IMG/VR virus record: IMGVR_UViG_3300033153_009093
Location: 116,375 to 180,374 of that record
DNA from: a virus
Direction: 5' to 3' (one strand)
DNA length: 64,000 nucleotides
Part shown: piece by piece, positions 3,903 through 55,965 of the stretch
How positions within the stretch are numbered: the stretch's first letter is position 1
Layout of the letters: each line of letters opens with the position of its first letter
Notes under the pieces: model-generated
The model's input: the letters and a program-made list of their open reading frames with translations, nothing else
The model's database searches: none
Told to the model about the DNA's origin: nothing
Program-made: the position numbers and the translations under genes

Positions 3903-5036
3903 TTACCTTTTTTTAGCACCTTCATCTATCTTATCGATAATAGTTTCTATATCTTGTGATTCTGATGCATTTTCTGAAATTTTCATTGCGGTTGAAATTG
4001 ATGTAAACCTATCTAATTGAATCTTATCATTTTCAAAATAATAATTAAAAATTCTTTCTTTTGATTCTTCTACAAATTTTTTATCATCATCGGGGTAAAA
4101 CTCATTGAAGATGCTATTAATAGCATACTTCCATTTATTGACACATTTATCGGTTAATAAATATTGATAAAAATCTTTTAATCGATGTTTATTATCTTTA
4201 TCATCTGCAAAGAAATACCAACCTGACCTTGATCCTATATCCTTTTTTGATTTCAAATAATTAATAAGTGTCAACGGGGAGTCGTATCCTGAAGTATTTG
4301 TAACTTCGAATTCTATTTTTCTATGCGGTGATATTATTTTACTTTTTTTAGTTTGTATAGTTGACACAAATCCAAATTCAGGATTAATCAATTTTGACTT
4401 CTTTCTTGTTGCATATAATGTCAAAAATGATTTATGTTTTACAGCATTACAAGAAGGTGGTTCAACGGGCATATATTGACCTTGCATACTTTCCCTATGC
4501 TGATTCAAAGCAAACATAGTTAAATTATTATCATAAAATTTTGTAATTCTAAATAATTTAGTAAATGCTCTTGCTTGCATCCCTATCTTTTCATATCCAT
4601 CCAACTCTTCATTGGCGGGAGTTTGTTGTAATGTATCCCATATAATAAATAAATCTACTCCGGGATTATTTTCTTTAACCTCGAAAATAATTTGTCCCGC
4701 TCTTTCAATTGATTCGGGATTAAGAATTATAACATTATCTAGGTTTTCTATTCCTAATGATTTTAATCTCATACCTGTTACTGATTCTTCTGTATCAAAA
4801 TACAAAGCGATATATTCTTTTGATTGTTTTATATATGATGATAATATTTGTATTGCCAATGTCGATTTTCCAACTGATGAAGTTGCCCAAATATATTCCA
4901 ATTGATATTTTGGCATACCACCTGAACCAATAAAAGCATCAAATATAGGATTTCCTGTTAAAAAGAAATCATAATTATCATCTATTTTTATAATGTCCTT
5001 TTTTAATGTTTTGCGCAAAGCATCTAAATTTACCAT
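3903..5036 (-). CDS. uvsX: RecA-like recombinase, UvsX type
   Basis: A 377-residue RecA-fold ATPase. Walker A is at about residues 51-59 (ATSSVGKST), after a segment resembling the UvsX/RecA N-terminus (LTGNPIFDAFIGSGGMP). Walker B lies in VDLFIIWDTL, followed by the ALNQHRES region typical of the RecA core. It would catalyse strand exchange on ssDNA coated by the phage SSB. It sits with primase and gp47-like genes. No TAG codons. Confidence 0.85.
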   Translation of the reverse strand: MVNLDALRKTLKKDIIKIDDNYDFFLTGNPIFDAFIGSGGMPKYQLEYIWATSSVGKSTLAIQILSSYIKQSKEYIALYFDTEESVTGMRLKSLGIENLDNVIILNPESIERAGQIIFEVKENNPGVDLFIIWDTLQQTPANEELDGYEKIGMQARAFTKLFRITKFYDNNLTMFALNQHRESMQGQYMPVEPPSCNAVKHKSFLTLYATRKKSKLINPEFGFVSTIQTKKSKIISPHRKIEFEVTNTSGYDSPLTLINYLKSKKDIGSRSGWYFFADDKDNKHRLKDFYQYLLTDKCVNKWKYAINSIFNEFYPDDDKKFVEESKERIFNYYFENDKIQLDRFTSISTAMKISENASESQDIETIIDKIDEGAKKR

Positions 5037-5058: not shown

Positions 5059-5580
5059 TTATAGCGTATCAGGAGAAAGCATATTATCAATATCATCAAT
5101 ATCCTCACCTGATGATAAGTCCATTTTTATTCTATCATTATCTAATTTTTGTAATTTTAATAAATTATTGGTTATATCATTTAAAATTGTTCTTCGGTCT
5201 GATATAACTTGTCTAATTAAATCTAACATCTTTACAATATTTTCTTCATTAGTCATTTCATTATGACTATCAATATATTTTTTAAATAATAGTTTTTGAT
5301 ACTTATATTCCTTAATAGCCAATTTAAGCATTAGAATTATTGATCTGAATGTTATATTTTTAGACATTGAATCAGTGAGACTTGTTATATTATCTATATC
5401 AGAAATTACATCATCTGCATAAATATTTAATTCATCATTCTCTTTTAATAAATCAAAAAAGAGTTTAACGCTAGATGTATTATTATAACTGTTACTGTTA
5501 ACATTTTGTTCGGGCCTTAAATTTTGAATATTATTTTTTATATTTTCAAAATTCGTTAGTGGTATATTTTTTTGTTCCAT
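5059..5580 (-). CDS. Unknown helical protein upstream of uvsX
   Basis: 173 residues, Asn/Asp/Lys-rich and almost wholly helical by composition, with an acidic tail (SSGEDIDDIDNML). First gene of the left minus-strand operon, 22 bases before uvsX. It could be a recombination mediator, but no motif proves it. Confidence 0.6.
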   Translation of the reverse strand: MEQKNIPLTNFENIKNNIQNLRPEQNVNSNSYNNTSSVKLFFDLLKENDELNIYADDVISDIDNITSLTDSMSKNITFRSIILMLKLAIKEYKYQKLLFKKYIDSHNEMTNEENIVKMLDLIRQVISDRRTILNDITNNLLKLQKLDNDRIKMDLSSGEDIDDIDNMLSPDTL

Positions 5581-5649
5581 GTTTATTTACCTATAATAAA
5601 ATTATATATAATTAATTTCATAATCTAATACATAAAAAGGATTATTATA

Positions 5650-6144
5650 ATGCTTCGGATACCTAATATATTTATAGAAAATATTACCCATATATCAGCT
5701 AAACCTTTCTTTGATATAAAATTTGATTCCATAAAAGGAGTTAATATAAATAATGATTTTTTAGACATCATTTTTTACAGGTCATTAATAGGAAAAGTAT
5801 CTTCTAAAAAAAATGGAATCAAAATAAGATACTTTGATGAAAATAATAATATATTACATAATTCTAATATTTCAAAATTTAAAAAAACTATTTATGAAAA
5901 CAAAAAAATAGTATCAAATAAAAATAGTATCAAAATTAAAAAAAGTAATAATTGTAAATACCTAACTCGATTAGAAATTATTTTTACATATAATAGTATA
6001 GACACTATTATATTTGATACTAAAATTCCACAGAATACAATATTTTCTGAAAACACTAATGGAACTATTAAAAGTGGCATAGCTATTCCTTTAAATGAAA
6101 CTAATATTGAATTGTATAATAAATTTCAAATAATATATAAATAA
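5650..6144 (+). CDS. Unknown protein co-transcribed with the TnpB-like gene
   Basis: 164 residues starting MLRIPNIFIEN. The pattern of alternating hydrophobic residues suggests mostly beta strands; no catalytic motif, signal peptide or membrane helix. Only 1 base separates its TAA from the next ATG, so it is almost certainly translated from the same message as the TnpB homologue. The pair is a plus-strand island between two minus-strand operons, which suggests an accessory insertion. It could be a partner or cargo of the TnpB-like protein. Confidence 0.65.
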   Translation: MLRIPNIFIENITHISAKPFFDIKFDSIKGVNINNDFLDIIFYRSLIGKVSSKKNGIKIRYFDENNNILHNSNISKFKKTIYENKKIVSNKNSIKIKKSNNCKYLTRLEIIFTYNSIDTIIFDTKIPQNTIFSENTNGTIKSGIAIPLNETNIELYNKFQIIYK

Positions 6145-6145
6145 T

Positions 6146-7477
6146 ATGAAAAAGTGTATAAAAAATTATTCTATAAACATATCATCATCTAATTATAATA
6201 AATTAACCAATTATTTATTATACTATAATAAGTGTAAAAATTTATTTTATAATAAATATTAGAATGATATCGGTACAATATATTTACCATATAAATATGA
6301 ACTACGAGATACATTAGTTTCAAATATAAAAAATAATGATTTGAATATTAATGAATTGGATTTATTAAAAAGCGTTCCCGCTAAATTATAGAAAAACGCA
6401 TTAACTGAATCTATAACTAATTTAAAATCTAATTAGTCTAATACAAAAAATAGAATTAGACAAAAAATAAAAAAGAACAAAAATTTTTCTGAAAAAGATA
6501 CTCATTATTTATATTATGTACTTAAATCAAATAACATATTACATAATATAAATAATGGAGATTTGAATATAACCTTAGAAAAATTTGATGTAAATTATAA
6601 AAAACTTAATTCATATTTATATCGACAAATAAAAAAAGAAAAAAGAAAACCTTATTCTAAAAGTAATAGTTATATTATAGATAGTAGCTCGCAAATATTA
6701 TACAAACAAATAGATAATAATTTAATTTGTTTCCTATCAACATTAAAAAAACGAGAAAGGATTTTAATCCGTTTATCAAATAGTATAAAATATAAAGGCG
6801 ATATTCGTATAGTATTAAAAAATAATAAAATGGAACTACATAAAGTTATTAATATTAAACCTCAATTAAATAACAACAATTCTATTACTGGAATTTATAT
6901 TGATTTTAATAATTTATTCACAACCCAAAATAATATTTATGGTAAAAATTTCGATAAACTATTAAAAAAATTTGCACATATTATTCACTGTAAATCAAAT
7001 AAAAGGGAAATCCTTAAATCAATGAATAATATACTAATACAAAAAAATAACTTAGGTACAAAAAAATAGCACAGTAAAAAAAGAAAATTTATTAATGAAT
7101 TAAATTCCTTTATAAATTTGAATTTGAATTTATTAATTAAAGAAGAGCGGCCTAAAACTATTATTATAAAAAAAATAAATAAATATTTATTATATAATAA
7201 TAGAGATAATTTATTTAATATTCCAAACCATCATTTATAGATCTTAAATAATTATATAATAAATTACATTTATAAACGATTAGAATACAAAACACAATTA
7301 AATCAAATTAATATAATATTAGATAGTTCAAATTATACAATCAAAGTATGTAATAATTGTAAAAGTAGAAATACTATTATTACAAAAGGGTACTTTAAAT
7401 GTAATAATTGCATGGTTAGTATAACTAAAACATCTAATACAATAAACAATATGATTGAGCATCACGGTGTTAATTAA
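6146..7477 (+). CDS. Nuclease-dead TnpB homologue (TldR-like, candidate RNA-guided DNA-binding protein)
   Basis: 443 residues once TAGs at codons 39, 82, 97, 308 and 365 are read as sense. The C-terminal half aligns with TnpB/IS605-family RNA-guided nucleases. The RuvC-I site GIDxG is GIYID (Y251 for Asp). The RuvC-II site IVIED is IIIKK (K342 for Glu). The zinc ribbon is intact (C402-x2-C405, C419-x2-C422), but the RuvC-III DxNAA site is TSNTI (T429 for Asp, N431 kept). All three catalytic acids are thus lost while length and fold features are kept, as in TldR proteins, which are TnpB-derived RNA-guided transcriptional repressors. No tnpA and no IS200/IS605 ends are seen. Loss of catalysis by simple decay is the alternative, but the frame is intact. 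Confidence 0.8.
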
Positions 7478-7588
7478 TGTTGTTTACCTAACTGGTTTTT
7501 GGAAAATGTATATTTATATACATTACTGGTTTAACCTAACTTCACGGAAAGAGAAATTTAAATTCAGTTAATAGTAAATTCCCTTATA
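7478..7588 (+). ncRNA. Candidate omega-RNA-like guide RNA downstream of the TnpB homologue
   Basis: In TnpB and TldR systems the guide RNA scaffold overlaps or follows the 3' end of the protein gene and ends in the guide. This non-coding stretch sits exactly there and is followed at once by a strong terminator. It holds an 8-bp hairpin (7505-7512 with 7517-7524, loop TTTA), partial direct repeats around CTAACTGGTTT and TTACTGGTTTA, and a weaker stem between 7552-7559 and 7575-7582. The 5' limit may lie inside the coding region. Guide boundaries cannot be set from one sequence. Confidence 0.4.
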
Positions 7589-7618
7589 CCGGAGAAGATT
7601 TTCTTCTCCGGTTTTTTT
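7589..7618 (+). terminator. Rho-independent terminator after the TnpB-like unit
   Basis: 9-bp GC-rich stem (CCGGAGAAG at 7589-7597 with 7603-7611), 5-base loop and a run of seven T. It ends the plus-strand island and lies against the 3' end of the convergent DUF5662 gene. Confidence 0.9.
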
Positions 7619-8069
7619 ATAGATACTTTTCAATTTTTTTATTAGTACTTTCATGTAAAATCATATCACTTTTATTTTTATTAAAATATGATTTTGGTGT
7701 GCCTTCAAATTTTCTCGACATTCCCCTCTAATCGGCAATCATTTGAAGTATGTATTTTTTTGGCATTTCAATAGGAATTATTTCATTTTTCCTTGTTACA
7801 GATACCTAGTAATTCTAATGATGTTTATTTCTTTTTTGATGTTTATTCTACCCTTGTTGAAATAATTTATCGTTTCCATCAGATTTACAATAATTATTTA
7901 AGCTATCTTTCTTTTCAAAAAAGATAGCAGATGGTATAAATTCGGATGGTAAAAATTTTGATAAGTCATGAGTAATTGCATGATAATATAGTCCCATGTT
8001 GATACATTCTATTCCTACATTCTTTTTATGCTCAATAATATATTTAAAATATTTCTAATATTTATTCAT
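7617..8069 (-). CDS. DUF5662 family protein; key evidence that TAG encodes tryptophan
   Basis: 150 residues with in-frame TAG at codons 5, 74, 85, 88 and 114, ending in TAA. The family has a strongly conserved pattern: KYWKYLKY near the start, HDLSKFxPSEF, then AWLLHQKRNPHHWQYW, MPxKY and ADWRG. Here these read KY[TAG]KYFKY, HDLSKFLPSEF, G[TAG]NKHQKRNKHH[TAG]NY[TAG], MPKKY and AD[TAG]RG. All five TAGs fall on family Trp positions, and the protein has no TGG codon. The biochemical function of the family is unknown. The family consensus is from memory, not from a search. Confidence 0.85.
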
Positions 8070-8079
8070 TTTTTAACCT

Positions 8080-9084
8080 TTAATTAAATAATTTATTATT
8101 TAACTTAATAATTTTTGATTTCATATTAGCAATAGAAAAGTTTATACTTTTACTTATATCTTTTTCAACGAATATATAATAATACATTACCATTGACATA
8201 AATATATCTCCGCATCCTGAAGTAGTATTTATATTATTTATAATAGTATGACTTATATCTATTTTAAATTCTTTTATTTCTTTTTCATTACTATTATCAA
8301 AATAAATAATATCTTTAATGCCTCTAGTTATAATAAGGTACTTATAATCATACGCATATATTAAATCTTTTACCGGTTCATATTCTTTTTCATTTAGTTG
8401 TATTATAGTTTCGGTATTATATACGCTCTTTAATTTAGAAATCAATTCTTTAAAATATAATATCTTATGAGGTTTTGTATTTAAAAATAATGTATCTATT
8501 TTCCATTCATTATAAATAATATCATTTAATAAATTTTTTATAGATTCTTCAGTAAAGTACCCCTTATCATAATCTATAAGTATTAAAGAATTATTTTTTT
8601 CTTTAAACGCATAATTACAATTGATATGTTTCATTTTTATATCATTATCAATATCAAACCGATAAAAAATTTTGTTTTGTTTTTTTGAATAGAATCTAAA
8701 TTTTACTGTCGGTTTAATAGTATCATTAAGATAATATATCGGCCTCATTTTAATTATATCAAAATGGCGATAGTTCTTATTGCTTAGATATTTTATACTT
8801 CTATCAAATATCTCTTGTAAATTAAATCCATGCAATTTATCGTCATAGTTCACGTAATTAAAATTTGGTAATAAGTATTTAACATTATAGTCAAAATTTA
8901 AATCGTTGTTGATAATATCTAATAAATTTTCTAATATAAATCCACAACCACCGGGGTATACCGATAATGAATTATAATAACCTTTATATGATTCACTATT
9001 TACAATTTCTTGATTTTGTGATATATTTACATTATCAATATAAACATCTGCAATATAGTCACCTAAAATTACACTATTATTCAT
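8080..9084 (-). CDS. PfkB-family sugar kinase, heptose-7-phosphate kinase (HldE-N)-like
   Basis: 334 residues. The N-terminus (LGDYIADVYIDNVN) and the glycine motif YPGGCG at 43-48 match ribokinase-fold kinases, most closely the kinase half of HldE (GDxxxDRY...PGGAGN). The C-terminal anion-hole motif is TSGCGDIF near residue 290, with the catalytic Asp of GxGD present. It could phosphorylate heptose-7-phosphate made by the GmhA-like isomerase at 34226..34723. Other PfkB substrates (ribose, fructose) cannot be excluded. Confidence 0.7.
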   Translation of the reverse strand: MNNSVILGDYIADVYIDNVNISQNQEIVNSESYKGYYNSLSVYPGGCGFILENLLDIINNDLNFDYNVKYLLPNFNYVNYDDKLHGFNLQEIFDRSIKYLSNKNYRHFDIIKMRPIYYLNDTIKPTVKFRFYSKKQNKIFYRFDIDNDIKMKHINCNYAFKEKNNSLILIDYDKGYFTEESIKNLLNDIIYNEWKIDTLFLNTKPHKILYFKELISKLKSVYNTETIIQLNEKEYEPVKDLIYAYDYKYLIITRGIKDIIYFDNSNEKEIKEFKIDISHTIINNINTTSGCGDIFMSMVMYYYIFVEKDISKSINFSIANMKSKIIKLNNKLFN

Positions 9085-9250
9085 TTAATTCTCTTTCTTC
9101 TTTTAATAAATTATCATGTCGCTGAGAAATATTCTTTTCACATTCTTTAAAATTGGTGATTAATAGTTTCAATATTTCTTTTTTTTTATTTACATTATCT
9201 ATTACATCATATTCTTGTATTAACTTAATAATGACATCAATGTCTATCAT
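9077..9250 (-). CDS. Unknown 57-residue charged helical protein
   Basis: Starts MIDIDVIIKLIQEYD and is nearly all helix by composition. Its last codons overlap the start of the kinase gene by 8 bases (AATGAATAA), which suggests translational coupling. No known family. Confidence 0.55.
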   Translation of the reverse strand: MIDIDVIIKLIQEYDVIDNVNKKKEILKLLITNFKECEKNISQRHDNLLKEERELNE

Positions 9251-9281
9251 AATATATTTATATCATTTTTTATCTTAATAA

Positions 9282-9312
9282 ATAAAAAAGGCTGCGCTAA
9301 AAGCACAACCTT
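9282..9312 (-). terminator. Terminator after the Hc1-like gene
   Basis: 10-bp stem with two to three G-U pairs (9303-9312 with 9288-9297), loop of five bases, then a T run on the minus strand. Confidence 0.8.
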
Positions 9313-9341
9313 TTCATCTTTAATTATTTTTCTGTCTTAGT

Positions 9342-9536
9342 TCAGAATGTTTTACAATCAGCAACTGATTGACTTCTAAAATCTTTAAACAACTTTGCCA
9401 ATTCTAAAGTTTGTTTTCTAGCTCGCTTCGCTGCCACCTTTTTCTTTTTTATCGCATAATCGTCCAGTTCAGCAACTAATTCTTCAATAAGACCTTTAAT
9501 ACCACTTACGATTTCGACAGATTTTAATTCTTCCAT
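9342..9536 (-). CDS. Histone H1-like DNA-binding protein (Hc1 family)
   Basis: 64 residues with a basic centre (AIKKKKVAAKRARKQTLELAK) followed by LFKDFRSQSVAD. This matches the small Hc1-like proteins of Bacteroidetes and Chlamydiae (pattern KAAxxRARKxxLELxKLxKEFR). It probably binds and compacts DNA. It is monocistronic with its own terminator. The stop is TGA and base composition is slightly higher in GC than the neighbours. A chromatin-like role on phage or host DNA is inference. Confidence 0.75.
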   Translation of the reverse strand: MEELKSVEIVSGIKGLIEELVAELDDYAIKKKKVAAKRARKQTLELAKLFKDFRSQSVADCKTF

Positions 9537-9573
9537 AAATATATCACCTTCCTTTCTATTTTAATAAGTTAAT

Positions 9574-12039
9574 TTAATCACATCTTGAATATCCACAGGA
9601 TATACATTTTATACAGCCGCCTTCATCTAATAATATTTCCTTACAATTGGGACAGTTATTACTATTATTAGAATATACATTTTCATTTATATATACCTTT
9701 AATACCCTTGAAACTACAGCTACAAAATCACTAACAAAATTACTAGATTTTTTAAGTTGTTTTATAATGAATTCATGATATACTCCATGTCTCAATGATA
9801 ATGAAATCATCCTTGTTAATGCTTTATATTCATCATTCATGAATAATTCAGTTATTTCATTATATTCAATATATGAGTTTCTAAATGGAATTTTTAAAGT
9901 ATAATTCCCATGATTTTTTATTATTATTCCTTTTTTAACATTTTGCGAAATATTAAAAAATTCATTTTTCTTCCCGGCAAATATTTCATATGGAGCATCG
10001 TTTAATATTCCTATAAGAACTATCCACTTTTCTCCAGCCACTGAACAGTGATGTATTTTACAACTTAATTCCTTTGGCCTCTTCGGTGCGCATTGATAAG
10101 TGATACTATCAGGTCTATATAATTTATCAATGCAACTTTTTACTTTTTTCTTATCATATTTTAATTTATGCTCTATTGGATTTTCAAAAATCAAGATACC
10201 TTCTCTTGAACCTTCACGATACACTGACAACGCTTTTAAGCCTTTATTAAAGGCATCGGAGTATATATCCCCTATTTTTTGAAAATCAAAATCAAAGGGC
10301 AAATTATACGTTACAGAGATGGCGGCATCAACCCATCTTTGAACCTTGCTCATTAATTCTACCTTTTTAAAGGGGTCAATTTCATGAGCAGGTGATAATA
10401 AATCAGTATCGATATATTTATTTACAATATTAATTATTTTTTCACCAATTTTACCATCTGTATCTAACTCTGATCCGCTAAAATTATTAATTAAATTATA
10501 ATCAAATACATCACATTTCCCTATTTCTTTCATTTTGCTTAATACTATTTTTTTAATAACACTTGGTAAAACAAAATAGTAATCATATTCATTTTTAGAA
10601 ACTGCTCTTGTTTTTCTCCAATAAGCAAACCCTATAGTTGGTTCTATGCCAGATGATAGGCAATCATTCGGAAATGTCATTGAAATTGAACCAGTGGGGG
10701 CTACTGATAATAAAGCTCCATTTCTAATTCCAGTATTGTAAAATAAATCTTTTAAATCACTAAACTCGTTAAATAAATTTTTTAAAAATTTAGTTTCTTT
10801 TAATGTTCCTGTTTCTTTTCCACGTATCCAAGCAGAACATGGCCCTCTTTCGATGGCTAATTCGCAAGAAGCTTTAAATGCATAATATTGATAATATTTA
10901 AAAAATAAATCAACTGCCATAATAGCTTCATCTGAATCATATTTAATATTATTATTATAAAACCACATATGAAGGTTTGTTACACCTAATCCAATTTCTC
11001 TTAAATCTTTAACAATTTTTAATTGTTCTGGTAATGGAGATTTATAATCATTGTCAATTTCAAATTGAATTACATTATCCATAAACCTAACCAATGAATA
11101 AGTTTTCTCTTTCATAAAATCATGAAAATTATTAGTATCAATAAAAGGCACTTCTTCCATATTTAAAGATGCCAATGCACATACTCCATAATTAGGTAAA
11201 GGTTTTTCAGAACAAGCATTTGTTCCTATAATTTCATAACCTAACGCTTCTTGAATAGAGCCGTCTTTCATCCTATCAATGAATTGTATACCCGGTTCAG
11301 CATGATCATACGATTGCTTACATAATAAATTAAATATATAAGATGCATCTACAAATTTTGAAATCTTATGATCTTTTAAATCGAAATATAATTCCCATTT
11401 TTCATTATTATGAACTGCCTTCATAAAATTATCTGATATTTGCACAGATATATTCATATTTTTTAAAGTATCTAAATCACTTTTAGCTGTAATAAAATCA
11501 ATTACATCAGGATGAGAATCTTTAATAGCACTAAGAATGGCCGGTCTTCTACCTTTCTGACCGACCTCATCCGCAATAGAATCAAAAGATTTCATCCAAT
11601 TAATAACACCTTCTGATACTTCAGAACTATTATTAACCGCAGTTCCTTTAGGTCTTAATTTTGAAAATTCTATACCAAGGCCTTGTCTATATGCCGCCAT
11701 TTTAGCACATTCATATCTAGCTTTATAAATAGCTTCTAAAGTATCATCACCTATAACTACACTAGTACAATTAAATAAACTGATTTTTTTAGATTTATTA
11801 TTAATACCGGATATAATAGAACCACCGGGCCGCCAAATGCCTTTTAATAAATCCTCTTTCCAGTTATTTTTCCATGAAGTTTCTTCAGTTTCAATTGAAA
11901 CTGAAGAAACTTCAGTCGCAATATTATCAAAACATTGTCTAACTGTTTGGGTTTTATTTTTTAAATACTTAGATTTAAAAATATCTATTCTCATTTGATC
12001 ATTATTAAAATAATCATTTATAGCTGTATTATCTTTCAT
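9574..12039 (-). CDS. nrdJ: Ribonucleotide reductase, class II (adenosylcobalamin-dependent)
   Basis: 821 residues. Visible active-site features are LFNCTSVVI (first redox Cys), GIEFSKLRP, the NACSE finger-loop motif followed by PNYGVCALASLN, and LSVAPTGSISM. The C-terminus carries a Cys cluster (CPNCKE...CIKCISCGYSRC) typical of NrdJ zinc tails. It reduces ribonucleotides to deoxyribonucleotides using B12, without needing an NrdB partner, so it works with or without oxygen. It heads a dNTP operon with dNMP kinase and dUTPase. No TAG codons. Confidence 0.9.
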   Translation of the reverse strand: MKDNTAINDYFNNDQMRIDIFKSKYLKNKTQTVRQCFDNIATEVSSVSIETEETSWKNNWKEDLLKGIWRPGGSIISGINNKSKKISLFNCTSVVIGDDTLEAIYKARYECAKMAAYRQGLGIEFSKLRPKGTAVNNSSEVSEGVINWMKSFDSIADEVGQKGRRPAILSAIKDSHPDVIDFITAKSDLDTLKNMNISVQISDNFMKAVHNNEKWELYFDLKDHKISKFVDASYIFNLLCKQSYDHAEPGIQFIDRMKDGSIQEALGYEIIGTNACSEKPLPNYGVCALASLNMEEVPFIDTNNFHDFMKEKTYSLVRFMDNVIQFEIDNDYKSPLPEQLKIVKDLREIGLGVTNLHMWFYNNNIKYDSDEAIMAVDLFFKYYQYYAFKASCELAIERGPCSAWIRGKETGTLKETKFLKNLFNEFSDLKDLFYNTGIRNGALLSVAPTGSISMTFPNDCLSSGIEPTIGFAYWRKTRAVSKNEYDYYFVLPSVIKKIVLSKMKEIGKCDVFDYNLINNFSGSELDTDGKIGEKIINIVNKYIDTDLLSPAHEIDPFKKVELMSKVQRWVDAAISVTYNLPFDFDFQKIGDIYSDAFNKGLKALSVYREGSREGILIFENPIEHKLKYDKKKVKSCIDKLYRPDSITYQCAPKRPKELSCKIHHCSVAGEKWIVLIGILNDAPYEIFAGKKNEFFNISQNVKKGIIIKNHGNYTLKIPFRNSYIEYNEITELFMNDEYKALTRMISLSLRHGVYHEFIIKQLKKSSNFVSDFVAVVSRVLKVYINENVYSNNSNNCPNCKEILLDEGGCIKCISCGYSRCD

Positions 12040-25490: not shown

Positions 25491-26477
25491 ATGAATTTAC
25501 CTATATCATATTCCAAATTCAATACATTTTGCTTTTGTCCATTGAAATATTGTCATCAATATGTAATAAAAACTCCATCAGAGTTTAAAATACAATATCC
25601 TTTAGTATTAGGCCAATTGACTCATTTATTTATACAATTATTCAATGATGAAAAATTTGATAAAGGAGATATTTTAAATTTAAAAAACGATTTAGATCAA
25701 TTATACGATTTAATAGATTTAAAATATCCCGCTTTTTACAATGATCAATATAAAATAAAACAAATTGATATATCGAAAAATGTAAGTAATTTAATAAATT
25801 TCATAAATGAAAGCCCGGCAGTATTTTTTCATGCGGTGAAATTATTTAATGTATATAATTCTACATTTTTTCCGAAAATAAATATGTCATCTGGTATATT
25901 ATCAGAAATGACATTTCATAATATTATACCAGTATCAGATGAATTTACGGTATGTTTATATGGAAGTATAGATATATTTTTCTATAATTTAATTGATGGG
26001 ATATTAAATTATATTTATATTAGTGATATAAAAAGTGGTAAGAGATTATATGATCATTACTTTGATCAATTATTTTTTTATTTATTTAATATACGTGATT
26101 ATAATATTGAACTAGGTAAAAAAATAATTGATAATACTGATAATATTAAAGTTATTAGTACTTTAAAAGATAAAATAACCGATGAAAATAGTAAGTTAGT
26201 ACTTTTTTCACTGCAAGAAAATTTACATGTTAAGAAAGATTTTAAAGTAATTAAAAATGAATATGAAGATTTTATAAGTAAGTTGTATAGAATATTACAA
26301 AATGATATTTATTTTTTACATAAAGATAAAGATTTTATAGTATTAAGTGAAATTTTTAATAAATATAAAGAAGAATATAATTTGAAGAGTATGACTGAAT
26401 GCCAAAAGAAAGATGTTAGTTATCTTTGTAACTTTTGTGATTTTATAGAAGTTTGTGAGTATAGAAAATTGAAATAA
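25491..26477 (+). CDS. PD-(D/E)XK nuclease, RecB/Cas4-like
   Basis: 328 residues. SYSKFNTFCFCPLKY at the start, GQLTHLF, then ISDIKSGKRL (Asp and Lys of the core) and a downstream Gln helix match the Cas4/AddB-type nuclease family. The C-terminus has clustered Cys (CNFCDFIEVC) and with the early Cys could hold an Fe-S cluster. It probably processes DNA ends in recombination or packaging. Confidence 0.75.
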   Translation: MNLPISYSKFNTFCFCPLKYCHQYVIKTPSEFKIQYPLVLGQLTHLFIQLFNDEKFDKGDILNLKNDLDQLYDLIDLKYPAFYNDQYKIKQIDISKNVSNLINFINESPAVFFHAVKLFNVYNSTFFPKINMSSGILSEMTFHNIIPVSDEFTVCLYGSIDIFFYNLIDGILNYIYISDIKSGKRLYDHYFDQLFFYLFNIRDYNIELGKKIIDNTDNIKVISTLKDKITDENSKLVLFSLQENLHVKKDFKVIKNEYEDFISKLYRILQNDIYFLHKDKDFIVLSEIFNKYKEEYNLKSMTECQKKDVSYLCNFCDFIEVCEYRKLK

Positions 26478-26493
26478 TTGGAGATAGTTTTTA

Positions 26494-26712
26494 ATGGTTA
26501 ATATAACAGTTGAAAAAAAATCATATGAATCATTATATGGAATGATAAGTAGATTTAATAAAAAGGTAGAGGATGAAGGTATTTTAAAAGATTATAAATT
26601 ATCCCAAATGAGAAAACAAGATAGACTGACTTTTAAAAAATTTACTGCGGAAAGAAGAAGAGAAAAGCAACAAAAAAGAATTCAGTTAGCTATGAATTCA
26701 TCTCGATCATGA
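26494..26712 (+). CDS. rpsU: Ribosomal protein bS21 homologue
   Basis: 72 residues: VNITVEKKSYESLYGMI, then FNKKVEDEGILKDYK and a basic RRREKQQKR tail. This is the bS21 plan (VxVxxxExxxxALRRFKRxxEKxGVLxE...KRxxA). bS21 sits on the 30S subunit near the anti-Shine-Dalgarno region and influences initiation. A phage copy could replace the host protein and favour phage mRNAs. It overlaps the next gene by ATGA. Confidence 0.8.
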   Translation: MVNITVEKKSYESLYGMISRFNKKVEDEGILKDYKLSQMRKQDRLTFKKFTAERRREKQQKRIQLAMNSSRS

Positions 26713-27620
26713 AAACTACATACAAAATATCAAAGAATTTTTTAAAAAATAAAGATTATAAAATTTGTATATTTGATGTTAATTCTTTATTTTTATTTAA
26801 TGGCAAAAATAGTATAAGGTTAATGTACGATTTTATAGCTAATTTAAGAAAAACATTCCCTGACTTATTAATAATAAACGTAATAGATAATGGTATTAGT
26901 AATATTTTATTAAATAAATATCCATATTATAAAGCGAACAGAAATCATTCAATAAAAAGTAATAATATTATTATTAATAAATTTGGAACAATAAATAGTT
27001 TTAAGGCAAAAATCGGCAGAATACATAAGTTAGATGAATCATTCAATAAAAATTTAACGTTTTATTATCCAGGTGAAAGTGATTTTAAAATAGGATAGAT
27101 TTTAAAATATATAAATAAATATACATCGTTATCTAGCGATAATATATTGACGGTTTCATTAGATAAAGATTTTTTATTAACAACGATATTAAGTGATTTT
27201 TTATTAAAAAGAAGAATAAATAAGAAGACACATTATTGTTTGATAGACAGTAATGTTAATATTGAACAAGTGAAAAGTGTTTTTGGAATAGAAAAATTGA
27301 ATATTAAAAATCCATATGATTATTTTTATTTCTTAATATTAAATGGCGATAGAATAGATAATATAAAAAAATTATTTACAAAAGGTCAATCGATAAAAAT
27401 TTTGAATAATATATTAGATGATTTTGACGATATTAATTTAAACTTATTATTAAAATATTCAAAAAAAATATCAAATGAGATTGATACGAAATCTATTTAT
27501 GACAATGGTTATTTAGTCGATTTATTTAATGATGATATTTTTACAATAACGGAAAAAAATATAATGAAATGGATTATGAATTATTTTTTTCAAAACAATA
27601 ATATAAATATTTTATTATGA
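26709..27620 (+). CDS. FEN-type 5'-3' exonuclease paralogue with one TAG
   Basis: 303 residues when TAG at 27096-27098 is read. It parallels the 19117 gene: CIFDVNSL, NVIDNG, GESDFKIG[TAG]IL, VSLDKDFLL and NGDRID. At the TAG the paralogue has Tyr, so an aromatic residue is favoured over Gln. Metal-binding Asp residues are partly replaced (IDNG, ESD), so activity may differ from the first copy. Confidence 0.7.
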
Positions 27621-28060
27621 GAACATTAAAATATATAAATTTAACTGATACAGATATAGATTCTACATTAGAATCTTTTAATGCAATTTATCAATCGATA
27701 GATGATGATAAATTTATTGATTATATTAATAATTATTATAAAAATGATCAAAAAATTTATCCTTATAACATTGAGGAATTGCAACATTTTTGTAATAGTA
27801 TTATAAAATTTATTACTTTAAAAAGAAATAAATTAAGAATTAAAACAAATTTGAAACTTAATAAAGTTGATTTATTTTCTAATATTTTTGAAGATGGATA
27901 CACAATTTCTATTAATGTATATTTTTGGATAAATATATTATTTGAATATAATTTTTCAAAGTATGAAATATATGATAATATTGATGACATGGAAGACGCA
28001 TATAGAGGAATGTACACTGATTATTTGATGGAACATGACAGAAATAAAGCAAATAGTTGA
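27617..28060 (+). CDS. Unknown 147-residue protein
   Basis: ATGA overlap with the exonuclease paralogue, and 30 bases before the portal gene. Helical, acidic C-terminus. No match recognised. Confidence 0.6.
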   Translation: MRTLKYINLTDTDIDSTLESFNAIYQSIDDDKFIDYINNYYKNDQKIYPYNIEELQHFCNSIIKFITLKRNKLRIKTNLKLNKVDLFSNIFEDGYTISINVYFWINILFEYNFSKYEIYDNIDDMEDAYRGMYTDYLMEHDRNKANS

Positions 28061-28090
28061 TTAATTAATAAACTTCGTGGTTAATTTTAT

Positions 28091-29863
28091 ATGAAATTAA
28101 AAAGTAATAATATTAAATTAAATTTAGCAAATAGAAATAGTATAAAAAAAAATACATCAACTCCTAGTAAAAATTAGGATAGTATTACTGATAATCCTGC
28201 CATTAGAGATAAAATATTATCAAATACTAAATATGATATTCTTAATGAATCAGGATCAGAAATTAATAACGCTGCAATGAAAGCGTTTACTGATATGGGA
28301 ATAGCTGTCAGTGATGTAAATGTAAATGATCCGTTATCTCATAAAAATGTTATTAAGAGAGTTAATTTATATTTAAAAAGATTTCCGGAAGTCGAATATA
28401 TTGTAGATATGATAGCATCATCCGTGATATATTCATCATCCAGTAATACTAAAAAAATACAATGTACGTTAAGAGGAGATTATAAAACGTTAAATGGTTC
28501 GGACAGCACAATATCAGACAGTACAGAAAATGTCGATATCAGTGTCGATATCAATGATATAAAAGTTAAAAAAATAGATTCATAGTATGATGATTTAAAT
28601 TTACAAATTGGTAATTTATTTAAAAAGAATAATATTAAATTAGCTCTATATGATTTTATAAAGTCTATAGTAAATTATGGATGTAGTATATTTTATATCA
28701 ATGATACTGCAAAATACGAAGATGTTTCATTTTATAGTTTGGATGAATTAGATTTTTCATTTGAAAAAGATGAGGTTCATACTAATGCACTTTTGAATGA
28801 ATTGAAAAGAGAAGATAGTAAAATATTTGAAATATCAGAATTAAATAATGAAATTAAAAAGTTTAATTCAAATATAGTAACTGCAAAATTAAAAGAAGAC
28901 GATACAGAGTTGGATATATCAAAAATGTATTTTATTTCCGAAAAAGGTATTTTTGGAAAATCTAAGGTAATGAAAATAATTCATTATTTAAAGACTGTTG
29001 AGTTATTGGAGCTATCTTTACTTATTGAAAGATTATCAAAAACGAAAACTACACATGTATAGAAACTGGATTTAGATAAAGTTGAAGAAGAAGATTTATC
29101 TTCAACATTATTATTATATAGAAATTTATTAAAATCAAAGGTAGCACTGAATTACGATGAAGAAAATGATAATATGCAATTTGATTTTGTAAAAAATCTA
29201 GTTGATAATAATATTTTGGTACCTACAGAAAATGATAACTTAACAATTGATACATTAAAATCTGATTTTAAGCCATTATTAGATGATGTAAGTTATTATT
29301 AGGATAAAATATATTTATCAATGGGACTACCTTCGTATTACAGAAACTCCGATTCAAAGACGTATACAAACAATAATATGTTAATAATGCATGATAATGT
29401 ATATTCTATGAAAATTAGACATTATCAACTTATAATAAATAATTTATTAACATTTTAGATTGAGAATTGGTTAAAAGTTAATTTTTCAAAAATATCAGTT
29501 AAATACTTAAATATAAATATACCAGAATTTATTCCTTTAAGTGAGCGGAAAGAAACAGATATCGATAAATCTGGAAAATTTATCAATATGTTTTCGCAAT
29601 TAGAAAGTACTTTAGGTGTAAAATTAAAAAGAGAATTTGTATTAAATAAATTATTTCCTAATGATATTATATCCGATATGGTAGAAGTGGAAGAAATGGA
29701 TATTAAAAATGATATAGATTCTAATGAAAATAAAAAAGATGAAATAATGTCAATGTTTGAAGAAGGTGAAAACAAAAAAGAAAGCCTAAAGTTTTTTAGT
29801 ATCACTAAACAAGATAATATAGATATTATTAGGTATGATTTAAATTTAAGTATAAATTGGTGA
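28091..29863 (+). CDS. Portal protein, T4 gp20-like
   Basis: 590 residues when TAGs are read (codons 29 and 166 and four more), ending in TGA. Portal-type stations: VDMIASSVIYSS, a long helix LELSLLIERLSKTKTTHV, and DDVSYY[TAG]DKIYLSMGLPSYY, comparable with gp20 DV-x-Y-F-x-x-KLY...VP. It would form the dodecameric ring through which DNA is packaged and to which the neck binds. Multiple TAGs suit a late gene. The gp20 alignment is from memory. At the DVSYY[TAG] site Trp and Gln both seem possible. Confidence 0.65.
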
Positions 29864-31021: not shown

Positions 31022-31040
31022 AAAATAAGGAAATTGAAAA

Positions 31041-31742
31041 ATGTATAATTATTTAAATGAGTTAGCTTTTTACAAAGGCAAATCGGTCATGATCATTGAA
31101 ACTTCTATCGGAGTTTCTTATGGTAAATCCAGTCCATTTTTAAAGTTTAAATTTGCTCCAAGAAATGATTATAAATCGCCCGGTCAATGGAATGATGAAA
31201 ACGTATTTTGGGTAACTTCGTATGTCGATCTGTGTTTGTTTGTAAAAGGAATTAAGGATGTCGCAAGTGGAAATGAGCAAAAATATGAATTGAAAAATCC
31301 TTCAAAAGGTGTAACTGTAAGTATATATTCTTCTAAGAATGATAAGGACGGGACAGAGTATATAAATTTTGCTTTTTATAAAGGTGAAACTAAAATTCAT
31401 GTATCACTTATTAAATCAACTGAGTTTTTTGCTTTGTATACATATTATAAAAACTTACTTGATAATTATAATATAGTTTCGCAAACTGCGTTATTGAAAT
31501 ATGACGTTTGGTACGAATATGTTGGTAAGAAAGCACAAGGAAATGGTTCATATAATAATAACAAAAAAACATCATATACTAACGATAATAATAACAAAAA
31601 TCAGTCATATACTAACGATAATAATAATTATAAACCATCAAAAAATAATTCAACAATGAATACTGCTATGAATTCGATGGAAAATGATATAAAATCTTCT
31701 CAAAATAATTTTGATTTTAGTGATAATGATGTACCCTTTTAA
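31041..31742 (+). CDS. ssb: Single-stranded DNA-binding protein
   Basis: 233 residues: an N-terminal OB-like region, a long Asn/Tyr/Ser/Lys-rich linker from about residue 165, and an acidic tip ending DNDVPF. That tip is the hallmark of bacterial SSB proteins (DDDIPF), which use it to recruit partners. The OB fold itself is diverged. It would coat ssDNA for the UvsX and gp46/47 systems. Good ribosome site AAGGAAATTG upstream. Confidence 0.75.
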   Translation: MYNYLNELAFYKGKSVMIIETSIGVSYGKSSPFLKFKFAPRNDYKSPGQWNDENVFWVTSYVDLCLFVKGIKDVASGNEQKYELKNPSKGVTVSIYSSKNDKDGTEYINFAFYKGETKIHVSLIKSTEFFALYTYYKNLLDNYNIVSQTALLKYDVWYEYVGKKAQGNGSYNNNKKTSYTNDNNNKNQSYTNDNNNYKPSKNNSTMNTAMNSMENDIKSSQNNFDFSDNDVPF

Positions 31743-31802
31743 CAAAAAGTCGGCAGGTATATAATTGATAAATTAATATAATAAATTCTGTTAGGAAATT
31801 GT

Positions 31803-32900
31803 ATGCCAAAAACAAAAAAATTAATAGTTACCCGCCCTACTAAAGGGGGCGGGTTATCGACATATTCGCAATCGTATAATGTCAATAACACTCCAAGTAA
31901 AGAATCTGATAATATAATAAATTCTATAAAAATACAACATGCTATAAATGAAAGATATTTATTAAAAGATTATCTTAGAAGTTTAAAACTTTCCAATTTT
32001 GCAACATTTGATATAAAATTAATAATATCAAAAGTAAAAAACTTAAATGATATAGAAGAGTTATCAAAATTCATTATTGATAATATTGATCATTTAAATT
32101 TAATGGTAATATGTGGAATTTTTAATAATATACCTAATAAATATGAATACTATGAAATAATATTTAGGCATATTATTGATAATTTGAATATCTCAGATGA
32201 TAAATTATATTCTTTGATATATTCTTTGAATGATCATGATATGGTCTTAGGTTTATTACGGAAATCAAATAAATTAAAAACAGAAATATCAAATATTATT
32301 AATCCTTGTAATATTATACGCTTGTATTATAGTAATATAAATCCCGAATGCATATACTCAGCTATTAACAGTTTTAATAATAATGATAATATATTAAAAT
32401 ATTTATCTAATAATATAAAATTATCAACAGTAGAAAATAGAATTCTAGGTAGTTTTATTAAATATAATAATAATACTACAAAAGATACTAACTTATATTT
32501 AACATCTTTTGTAAATATATCACCTTATATAGCTGCCGATATTTATAAAAGAGACATTGATATTGATATAGGATTATATTCTAGTGGAGTATATGAATTA
32601 AGTAATAAGAAAAAGGATATTGATAAATTTTATTATAAAATAAAAGATATAAATGTTAATAACAATTCCAATTTTATAATTAATAATATTGGTTATTATT
32701 TAGATAATAATAATAAATGTTATTTAATAATGTTATTAGAAATAAATAGTTCAAATATGCACAATTTTAATTTCATCGCCTTGCCATCAAAATTTACAGA
32801 TATTAAAATAATTAATAAAATTATGAAAACTAATGGTGTAAAAAATAAAACGCAGATGATAAATTATAATTATAAAAAATATTTAGTGTGCAATAAATGA
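31803..32900 (+). CDS. Unknown 365-residue protein
   Basis: After a Gly-rich basic start (TRPTKGGGLSTYS) the protein is a series of short helices with repeated Asn/Ile stretches. No motif recognised. It overlaps the next gene by 4 bases. Confidence 0.55.
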   Translation: MPKTKKLIVTRPTKGGGLSTYSQSYNVNNTPSKESDNIINSIKIQHAINERYLLKDYLRSLKLSNFATFDIKLIISKVKNLNDIEELSKFIIDNIDHLNLMVICGIFNNIPNKYEYYEIIFRHIIDNLNISDDKLYSLIYSLNDHDMVLGLLRKSNKLKTEISNIINPCNIIRLYYSNINPECIYSAINSFNNNDNILKYLSNNIKLSTVENRILGSFIKYNNNTTKDTNLYLTSFVNISPYIAADIYKRDIDIDIGLYSSGVYELSNKKKDIDKFYYKIKDINVNNNSNFIINNIGYYLDNNNKCYLIMLLEINSSNMHNFNFIALPSKFTDIKIINKIMKTNGVKNKTQMINYNYKKYLVCNK

Positions 32901-55606: not shown

Positions 55607-55965
55607 TGGTGGAGATGGAGGGAGTCGAACCCTCGTCATGAATATAGTCCCTCTATATAATTATTTACATGCATAGCTCTATTTAATCAGGTTTCATACT
55701 TTAGAGCTAAATAAAGCAAACACTCTATAGGATATATCCCGTTAAATTCATCGTTGATTACAGGTATGTTTCAACAACTATCAGATGAAGTCGATGGAAT
55801 GTTTAAATTATCTGAGTCAAATAATCATTCCAGCAAAGCTGATCAAGCAGCCATTGCAATTGCGTAATCGTCAGCAATTATATTTACAGTAAACCAAATA
55901 ACGCATTGATTAAAAGCGACATGTTATACAAACTTTCTATACCATTCGATACCTTGTTCATCCCC
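55607..55965 (-). ncRNA. ssrA: Transfer-messenger RNA (tmRNA)
   Basis: 359 bases. The 5' end GGGGATGA and 3' end CATCTCC-A-CCA form a 7-bp acceptor stem with one G-U pair, and the T arm GGTTCGACTCCC is canonical; CCA is encoded. The reading frame gives the tag VNIIADDYAIAMAA, ending in TGA at 55845-55843 (resume codon taken as GTA at 55887). It would rescue stalled ribosomes and tag products for proteolysis. Use of TGA avoids TAG, which is sense here. A TATAAT-like -10 lies at 55977-55972. Confidence 0.92.

What the first reader, a model, noticed from the sequence alone, without database searches (positions are those of the whole stretch)
6146..7477. Intact TnpB homologue lacking all three RuvC catalytic residues
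RuvC-I Asp is Tyr251, RuvC-II Glu is Lys342 and RuvC-III Asp is Thr429, yet the zinc ribbon and overall length are kept and no transposon ends are seen. This is the hallmark of TldR, TnpB-derived RNA-guided repressors. It sits in a recoded large phage, needs five TAGs as sense (so it is resident, not newly arrived) and is co-transcribed with an unknown gene.
Basis: partly seen in the sequence, partly recalled or inferred. Interest (0 to 1): 0.9.

Follow-up and report, generated by a model that had tools for sequence, protein, structure and literature searches.

The report
Nuclease-dead TnpB kept by phages
A group of large viruses of bacteria has kept, in the same place in three very different genomes, a gene that came from a DNA-cutting, RNA-guided transposon enzyme but has lost all of its cutting residues, so it has probably been put to a new use such as finding or blocking DNA without cutting it.

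Summary
ORF 6146-7477 (+) is a full-length TnpB homologue; aligned to 41 viral TnpBs, the catalytic Asp, Glu and Asp fall exactly on Tyr251, Lys342 and Thr429, while all four zinc-ribbon cysteines are kept. It is not decay. Two other phages (G001; contig C67 in a MAG) carry the same gene, intact, at 35-51% identity, between the same neighbours, without the triad (Lys at the Glu position in all three) and under purifying selection. So this is an old exaptation that has become a conserved gene of the lineage. Two points need changing: TAG is read here as tryptophan, and upstream co-transcription is not conserved. All five Trp codons of the gene are TAG, as in most of the phage's structural genes and unlike the neighbouring replication genes, which suggests late expression. 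In the two relatives, a 57-nt noncoding element after the gene is the only clearly conserved noncoding gap of the region: a candidate guide RNA. It is not recognisable in the window, and no target was found. 'Works like a TldR' is plausible (about one in two); membership in the TldR family is not shown.

The parts
6146..7477 (+). Gene of the nuclease-dead TnpB derivative, 443 aa, five TAG codons (read as Trp)
6896..6898 (+). Codon 251 (Tyr), in the column of the RuvC-I catalytic Asp
7169..7171 (+). Codon 342 (Lys), in the column of the RuvC-II catalytic Glu; Lys in all three phages
7430..7432 (+). Codon 429 (Thr), in the column of the RuvC-III catalytic Asp
7349..7411 (+). Zinc ribbon, C402-x2-C405 to C419-x2-C422, conserved in all three
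7478..7587 (+). 3' untranslated region, the place where a guide RNA would be expected; not recognisably similar to the conserved element of the relatives, and no structure beyond chance without the terminator
7588..7619 (+). Intrinsic terminator (11-pair stem, T run), the only one found in 5400-7800
5650..6144 (+). Upstream gene, 164 aa, no known family; the gene next to the TnpB-like gene in all three phages, but separated from it by a terminator-like hairpin in the two relatives
3903..5036 (-). RecA-like gene, conserved flank
8080..9084 (-). Counterpart of the PfkB-like gene, conserved flank on the other side (PfkB is called in G001; the window copy is 39% identical to it)

Best explanation
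An old exaptation. A TnpB (RNA-guided transposon nuclease) was captured by an ancestor of this phage lineage, lost its nuclease and its transposon, and became a conserved gene of the lineage (shown: homology, dead triad, conserved position, purifying selection). The zinc ribbon and several conserved residues of the N-terminal part, which in TnpB holds RNA and target DNA, were kept (shown). Most likely it still binds an RNA made from the downstream noncoding region and uses it to bind DNA without cutting, late in infection, as a repressor or roadblock on a host or phage target (inferred, not shown).
For: Catalytic columns are Y/K/T, S/K/I and S/K/I in three phages; intact ORFs at 35-51% identity in the same gene order; codon positions conserved in the order 2 > 1 > 3; N-terminal block best conserved in every pair; 13 TnpB-conserved columns kept, among them K6, N28, K107 and the four Cys; modelled fold matches IS607 TnpB 8iaz, E 3e-11; 57-nt noncoding element after the gene conserved in G001 and C67, z 14.1 against at most 2.0 for seven other noncoding gaps, single-copy; Trp codon usage of structural genes in all three phages.
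Against: No RNA or DNA binding has been measured. The 3' element is not recognisable in the window, has no known RNA family, and in C67 runs into a terminator, which leaves little room for a variable guide. No target was found. Most TnpB-conserved columns are lost (49 of 62). The structural model was steered by TnpB rows in its alignment.
Confidence: 0.5

Rival explanations
1. Exapted, but no longer RNA-guided: the TnpB scaffold now serves as an unguided DNA- or RNA-binding protein, or as a virion or assembly factor, and the guide RNA is gone. The 3' element of the relatives would then be a regulatory 3' UTR or terminator.
For: No recognisable 3' element in the window; no target found; very strong divergence from TnpB; structural-gene-like Trp codon usage.
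Against: The 57-nt element after the gene is the only clearly conserved noncoding gap in the region in the two relatives, and it lies where TnpB guide RNAs lie; N-terminal TnpB columns are retained.
Confidence: 0.38
2. Still a nuclease through other residues (for example D253 near RuvC-I, or a new active site).
For: hhalign can place D253 on the RuvC-I Asp.
Against: D253 is not Asp in G001 and C67; Glu is Lys in all three and the third Asp is Thr or Ile; the RuvC-I segment differs in length between members.
Confidence: 0.05
3. A decaying, functionless TnpB relic.
For: Extreme divergence; length change near RuvC-I between members; partial duplication of the gene's 3' end in C67.
Against: Three intact ORFs at 35-51% identity in the same position; codon-position conservation typical of a protein under selection; four invariant Trp positions, three of them TAG in all three phages.
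Confidence: 0.03

Closest known systems
TldR (TnpB-like nuclease-dead repressors), PMC13418256 and the earlier work it cites
   Same: TnpB derivative with inactivated RuvC, carried by phages, outside a transposon; possible noncoding RNA downstream of the gene
   Different: No flagellin, transporter or csrA partner; conserved gene of large recoded phages in three divergent genomes; guide and target not found; far more diverged from TnpB than a recent inactivation would be (at most about 20% identity)
IS607-type TnpB with RAGATH-18-derived RNA (PMC11061315), structure 8iaz
   Same: Best structural match; weak profile match of one member to NCBIfam IS607_TnpB, E 0.0014; RNA lies downstream of the gene
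   Different: Catalytic triad lost; no serine recombinase next to it; no RAGATH-18 match
TnpB of Thermus phages YS40_Isch and TMA (L028, L029)
   Same: Only named-phage tblastn hits of the family (query P0002); profile similarity over 331 columns
   Different: RuvC-I Asp and RuvC-II Glu kept; only the third Asp reads as Gln; a resolvase gene adjoins it in TMA
Natural dCas12f (nuclease-dead Cas12f; 9n9c and 9n9m). That natural dCas12f works with sigma factors is from memory
   Same: Nuclease-dead Cas12f/TnpB fold
   Different: No sigma factor among the conserved immediate neighbours

Membership tests
TldR | TnpB homology over the whole protein | tested here: met
TldR | RuvC catalytic residues lost, in intact genes | tested here: met
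TldR | Guide RNA encoded next to the gene | tested here: inconclusive
   Conserved 3' noncoding element in two relatives, not recognisable in the window
TldR | Guide complementary to a regulated target next to a TAM | tested here: inconclusive
   No match above chance in the phage genomes or in the MAG; the host is unknown
TldR | Linked partner gene such as fliC, oppF or csrA | tested here: not met
   Neighbours are RecA, an unknown 173-aa gene, an unknown 164-aa gene, DUF5662 and a PfkB-like gene
TldR | RNA-guided DNA binding and transcriptional repression | not testable with these tools
   Needs purification, ChIP-seq or reporter assays
Active TnpB of IS200/IS605 or IS607 elements | D-E-D catalytic triad | tested here: not met
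Active TnpB of IS200/IS605 or IS607 elements | Transposon context (TnpA, element ends) | tested here: not met
   Same flanking genes in three phages, no adjacent transposase; element ends were not searched for as such
dCas12f with sigma factor | Adjacent sigma factor gene | tested here: not met
   Immediate neighbours only; the rest of the genome was not searched for sigma factors

The most novel reading that the evidence does not exclude
An independent, ancient class of RNA-guided, non-cutting regulator that is a conserved late gene of a phage lineage, whose full-length production depends on a phage suppressor tRNA reading TAG as tryptophan, so that it appears only late in infection.
Probability: 0.22. 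Interest if true: 0.87.

Novelty: new variant of a known kind. Interest (0 to 1): 0.62.

Why it matters
The dead TnpBs described in the paper read here (PMC13418256) are linked to homologues of host genes. Here a dead TnpB is a conserved gene of large phages, retained while its sequence diverged to 35-51% identity, which says that non-cutting TnpBs can be lasting phage genes in their own right. The conserved downstream element gives a direct thing to test. The finding also led to a likely reassignment of TAG to tryptophan, a code not named in any held paper for the exact phrases searched.

Tried and rejected
Decay: rejected on three intact orthologues and codon-position conservation. Restored catalysis through D253: rejected, not Asp in the relatives. 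TAG as Gln, which I used at first: rejected, Trp fits best in all six genome comparisons and in the terminase profile score. Self-targeting of the 3' RNA: best matches no better than shuffles. Target in the MAG: none above chance. Rfam: nothing in the window region, one chance-level snoRNA hit elsewhere. First AlphaFold run with two rows: pLDDT 41, not used. Sequence search of the PDB: no match. More kin in IMG/VR by the gene itself, RecA and capsid: only G001. 199 relatives of the MAG: no further copy. One viral scan with Thermus-phage TnpB found nothing.

Full report
Observation. ORF 6146-7477 (+) is open over 443 codons when TAG is read as sense. TnpB homology rests on PF07282 (23.7 bits, slightly under the cut-off; 27.5 bits, over it, in the six-frame search of this record), on hhalign with two Thermus-phage TnpBs (95.7%, E 1e-8, 331 columns) and on hhalign with 63 viral TnpBs (92.7%, E 6e-8, 348 columns; with other settings 101-154 columns at E about 1e-5). 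All 63 control TnpBs read D-E-D; their third Asp is partly built in, because one search pattern asked for it. In that alignment both relatives read S-K-I; reading RuvC-I without gaps puts Tyr and Phe there instead of Ser. Either way no acid is left, and the Glu is Lys in all three.

Not decay. One relative was found in IMG/VR (G001, 232.8 kb) and one on a MAG contig binned as Ca. Neomarinimicrobiota (C67; the MAG also holds the phage's capsid gene, so this is most likely a phage contig). In all three, a RecA gene, a 165-173 aa gene, a 164-184 aa gene, the TnpB-like gene and a PfkB-like gene follow in the same order and orientation; the window alone has a DUF5662 gene in between. The TnpB-like proteins are 35-51% identical, in the range of their neighbours. 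Codon positions 1/2/3 agree at 0.57/0.67/0.48 (window-G001), 0.51/0.62/0.44 (window-C67) and 0.61/0.75/0.54 (G001-C67), the pattern of selection on protein. The N-terminal 60 alignment columns are the best conserved block in every pair (amino-acid identity 0.52-0.65). The RuvC-I block is at 0.20-0.43: the lowest block for G001-C67, but not for the other two pairs, where the C-terminal block is as low or lower. Of 62 columns conserved in at least 80% of TnpBs, 13 are kept in all three: K6, N28, L86, L93, K107, Y381, K382, the four Cys, N431 and N435.

Fold. The first AlphaFold model (two rows) was useless (pLDDT 41). The second (44 rows, mean pLDDT 74, pTM 0.64) matches TnpB and Cas12f structures, first the IS607 TnpB complex 8iaz (E 3e-11, TM-scores 0.53 and 0.60). 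As the alignment contained TnpBs, this shows that the sequence is compatible with the fold; it is not independent proof. Both models used TAG as Gln.

Genetic code. TAG positions of G000 align in G001 with 24 W, 18 Y, 11 F and 1 Q of 88, and Trp has the best likelihood in all six genome comparisons (G000-G001: W -239.8, Y -265.6, F -294.2, Q -366.3). Independently, the terminase scores 124.0 bits against phrog_2 with TAG as Trp, 108.9 with Tyr and 98.4 with Gln. Both phages encode a tRNA with anticodon CTA; which amino acid it carries was not tested. In this gene, two columns are TAG in one phage and TGG in another (sequences; alignment).

Timing. In G000 the structural block has 209 TAG to 38 TGG. 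In the replication block around this gene the other genes have 0 TAG to 29 TGG, once this gene (5:0) and the DUF5662 gene (5:0) are set aside. G001 and C67 have 4:1 and 6:1 in this gene. A review of crAss-like phages says that recoded stops sit for the most part in late structural and lysis genes and may time their expression (PMC10136315). By that analogy this gene is probably late; that is an inference, and these are not crAss-like phages as far as tested.

RNA. After the gene in G001, and in C67 after a partial tandem copy of the gene's 3' end, lies a shared stretch of about 57 nt: CC(A/G)GTACAAC, ACTGGTTAAT, then a G-rich hairpin with loop CATGA whose stem differs by paired changes (and sequence reading). 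Its alignment score is 14.1 s.d. above shuffles (base-composition shuffles); seven other noncoding gaps between the same genes reach -0.4 to 2.0. One further gap scored 12.3, but it includes a 60-aa gene and so is not a noncoding control. The element is single-copy. This is where TnpB and TldR guide RNAs lie (PMC11061315, PMC13418256). Against it: the window's 3' region matches neither copy beyond chance (z 0.3 and 1.7); without its terminator its fold is unremarkable (z 0.07), so the z of -3.2 comes from the terminator; and in C67 the element runs straight into a terminator, which leaves little room for a variable guide. No target was found.

Upstream gene. The 164-184 aa gene accompanies the TnpB-like gene in all three phages and has no known family. 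In the window the two genes abut; in both relatives a strong hairpin with a T run lies between them. So a shared transcript is not conserved, although the pairing of genes is.

Conclusion. Shown: a nuclease-dead TnpB derivative that is a conserved gene of a phage lineage. Likely: late expression. Open: RNA binding, target and function. I put about 0.5 on an RNA-guided, non-cutting DNA-binding role and 0.38 on an exapted role without a guide. 'Works like a TldR' stands as a hypothesis; 'is a TldR' is not shown: the partner-gene feature was tested and not met, and the guide and target features are inconclusive.

Noticed in passing
whole record G000 and G001; in the window e.g. TAG codons at 6260, 6389, 6434, 7067, 7238: TAG appears to be reassigned to tryptophan, not glutamine. 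No held paper contained the exact phrases searched for this reassignment. TAG is the main Trp codon in structural genes and almost absent from replication genes.
   Followed up: partly
G000:108714-108787 (-), outside the window; G001:94764-94839 (+): Suppressor tRNA genes with anticodon CTA in both phages; both appear to have U at the discriminator position, which I would not expect of a bacterial tRNA-Trp, so how it would be charged is unclear.
   Followed up: no
window 55607-55965 (-): A tmRNA gene with tag peptide ADDYAIAMAA in the phage genome.
   Followed up: no
L028 1595-3061, L029 1562-3031: TnpBs of Thermus phages YS40_Isch and TMA keep the first Asp and the Glu but have Gln at the RuvC-III Asp position (NAQVNGA): possibly another inactivated phage TnpB.
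   Followed up: no
L048 724-1848: Bacillus phage BSP9 has a TnpB gene with an intact triad between the portal and prohead protease genes.
   Followed up: no
L027 about 4320-4480: Partial tandem copy of the 3' end of the TnpB-like gene, lying between the gene and its conserved 3' element.
   Followed up: partly
window 7617-8069 (-): DUF5662 gene with five Trp codons, all TAG, present next to the TnpB-like gene only in the window phage.
   Followed up: no
G000 31028-32155 (L006), G001 26109-27236: The major capsid protein, 67% identical between the two, has no match among 50,697 phage records and only G001 in the IMG/VR scans made: a rarely sampled phage group.
   Followed up: partly
L035 (G002:C105) 7112-12030: Three consecutive genes on the MAG's capsid contig all have the same G001 gene (27331-29115) as best match, so they look like tandem paralogues.
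   Followed up: no
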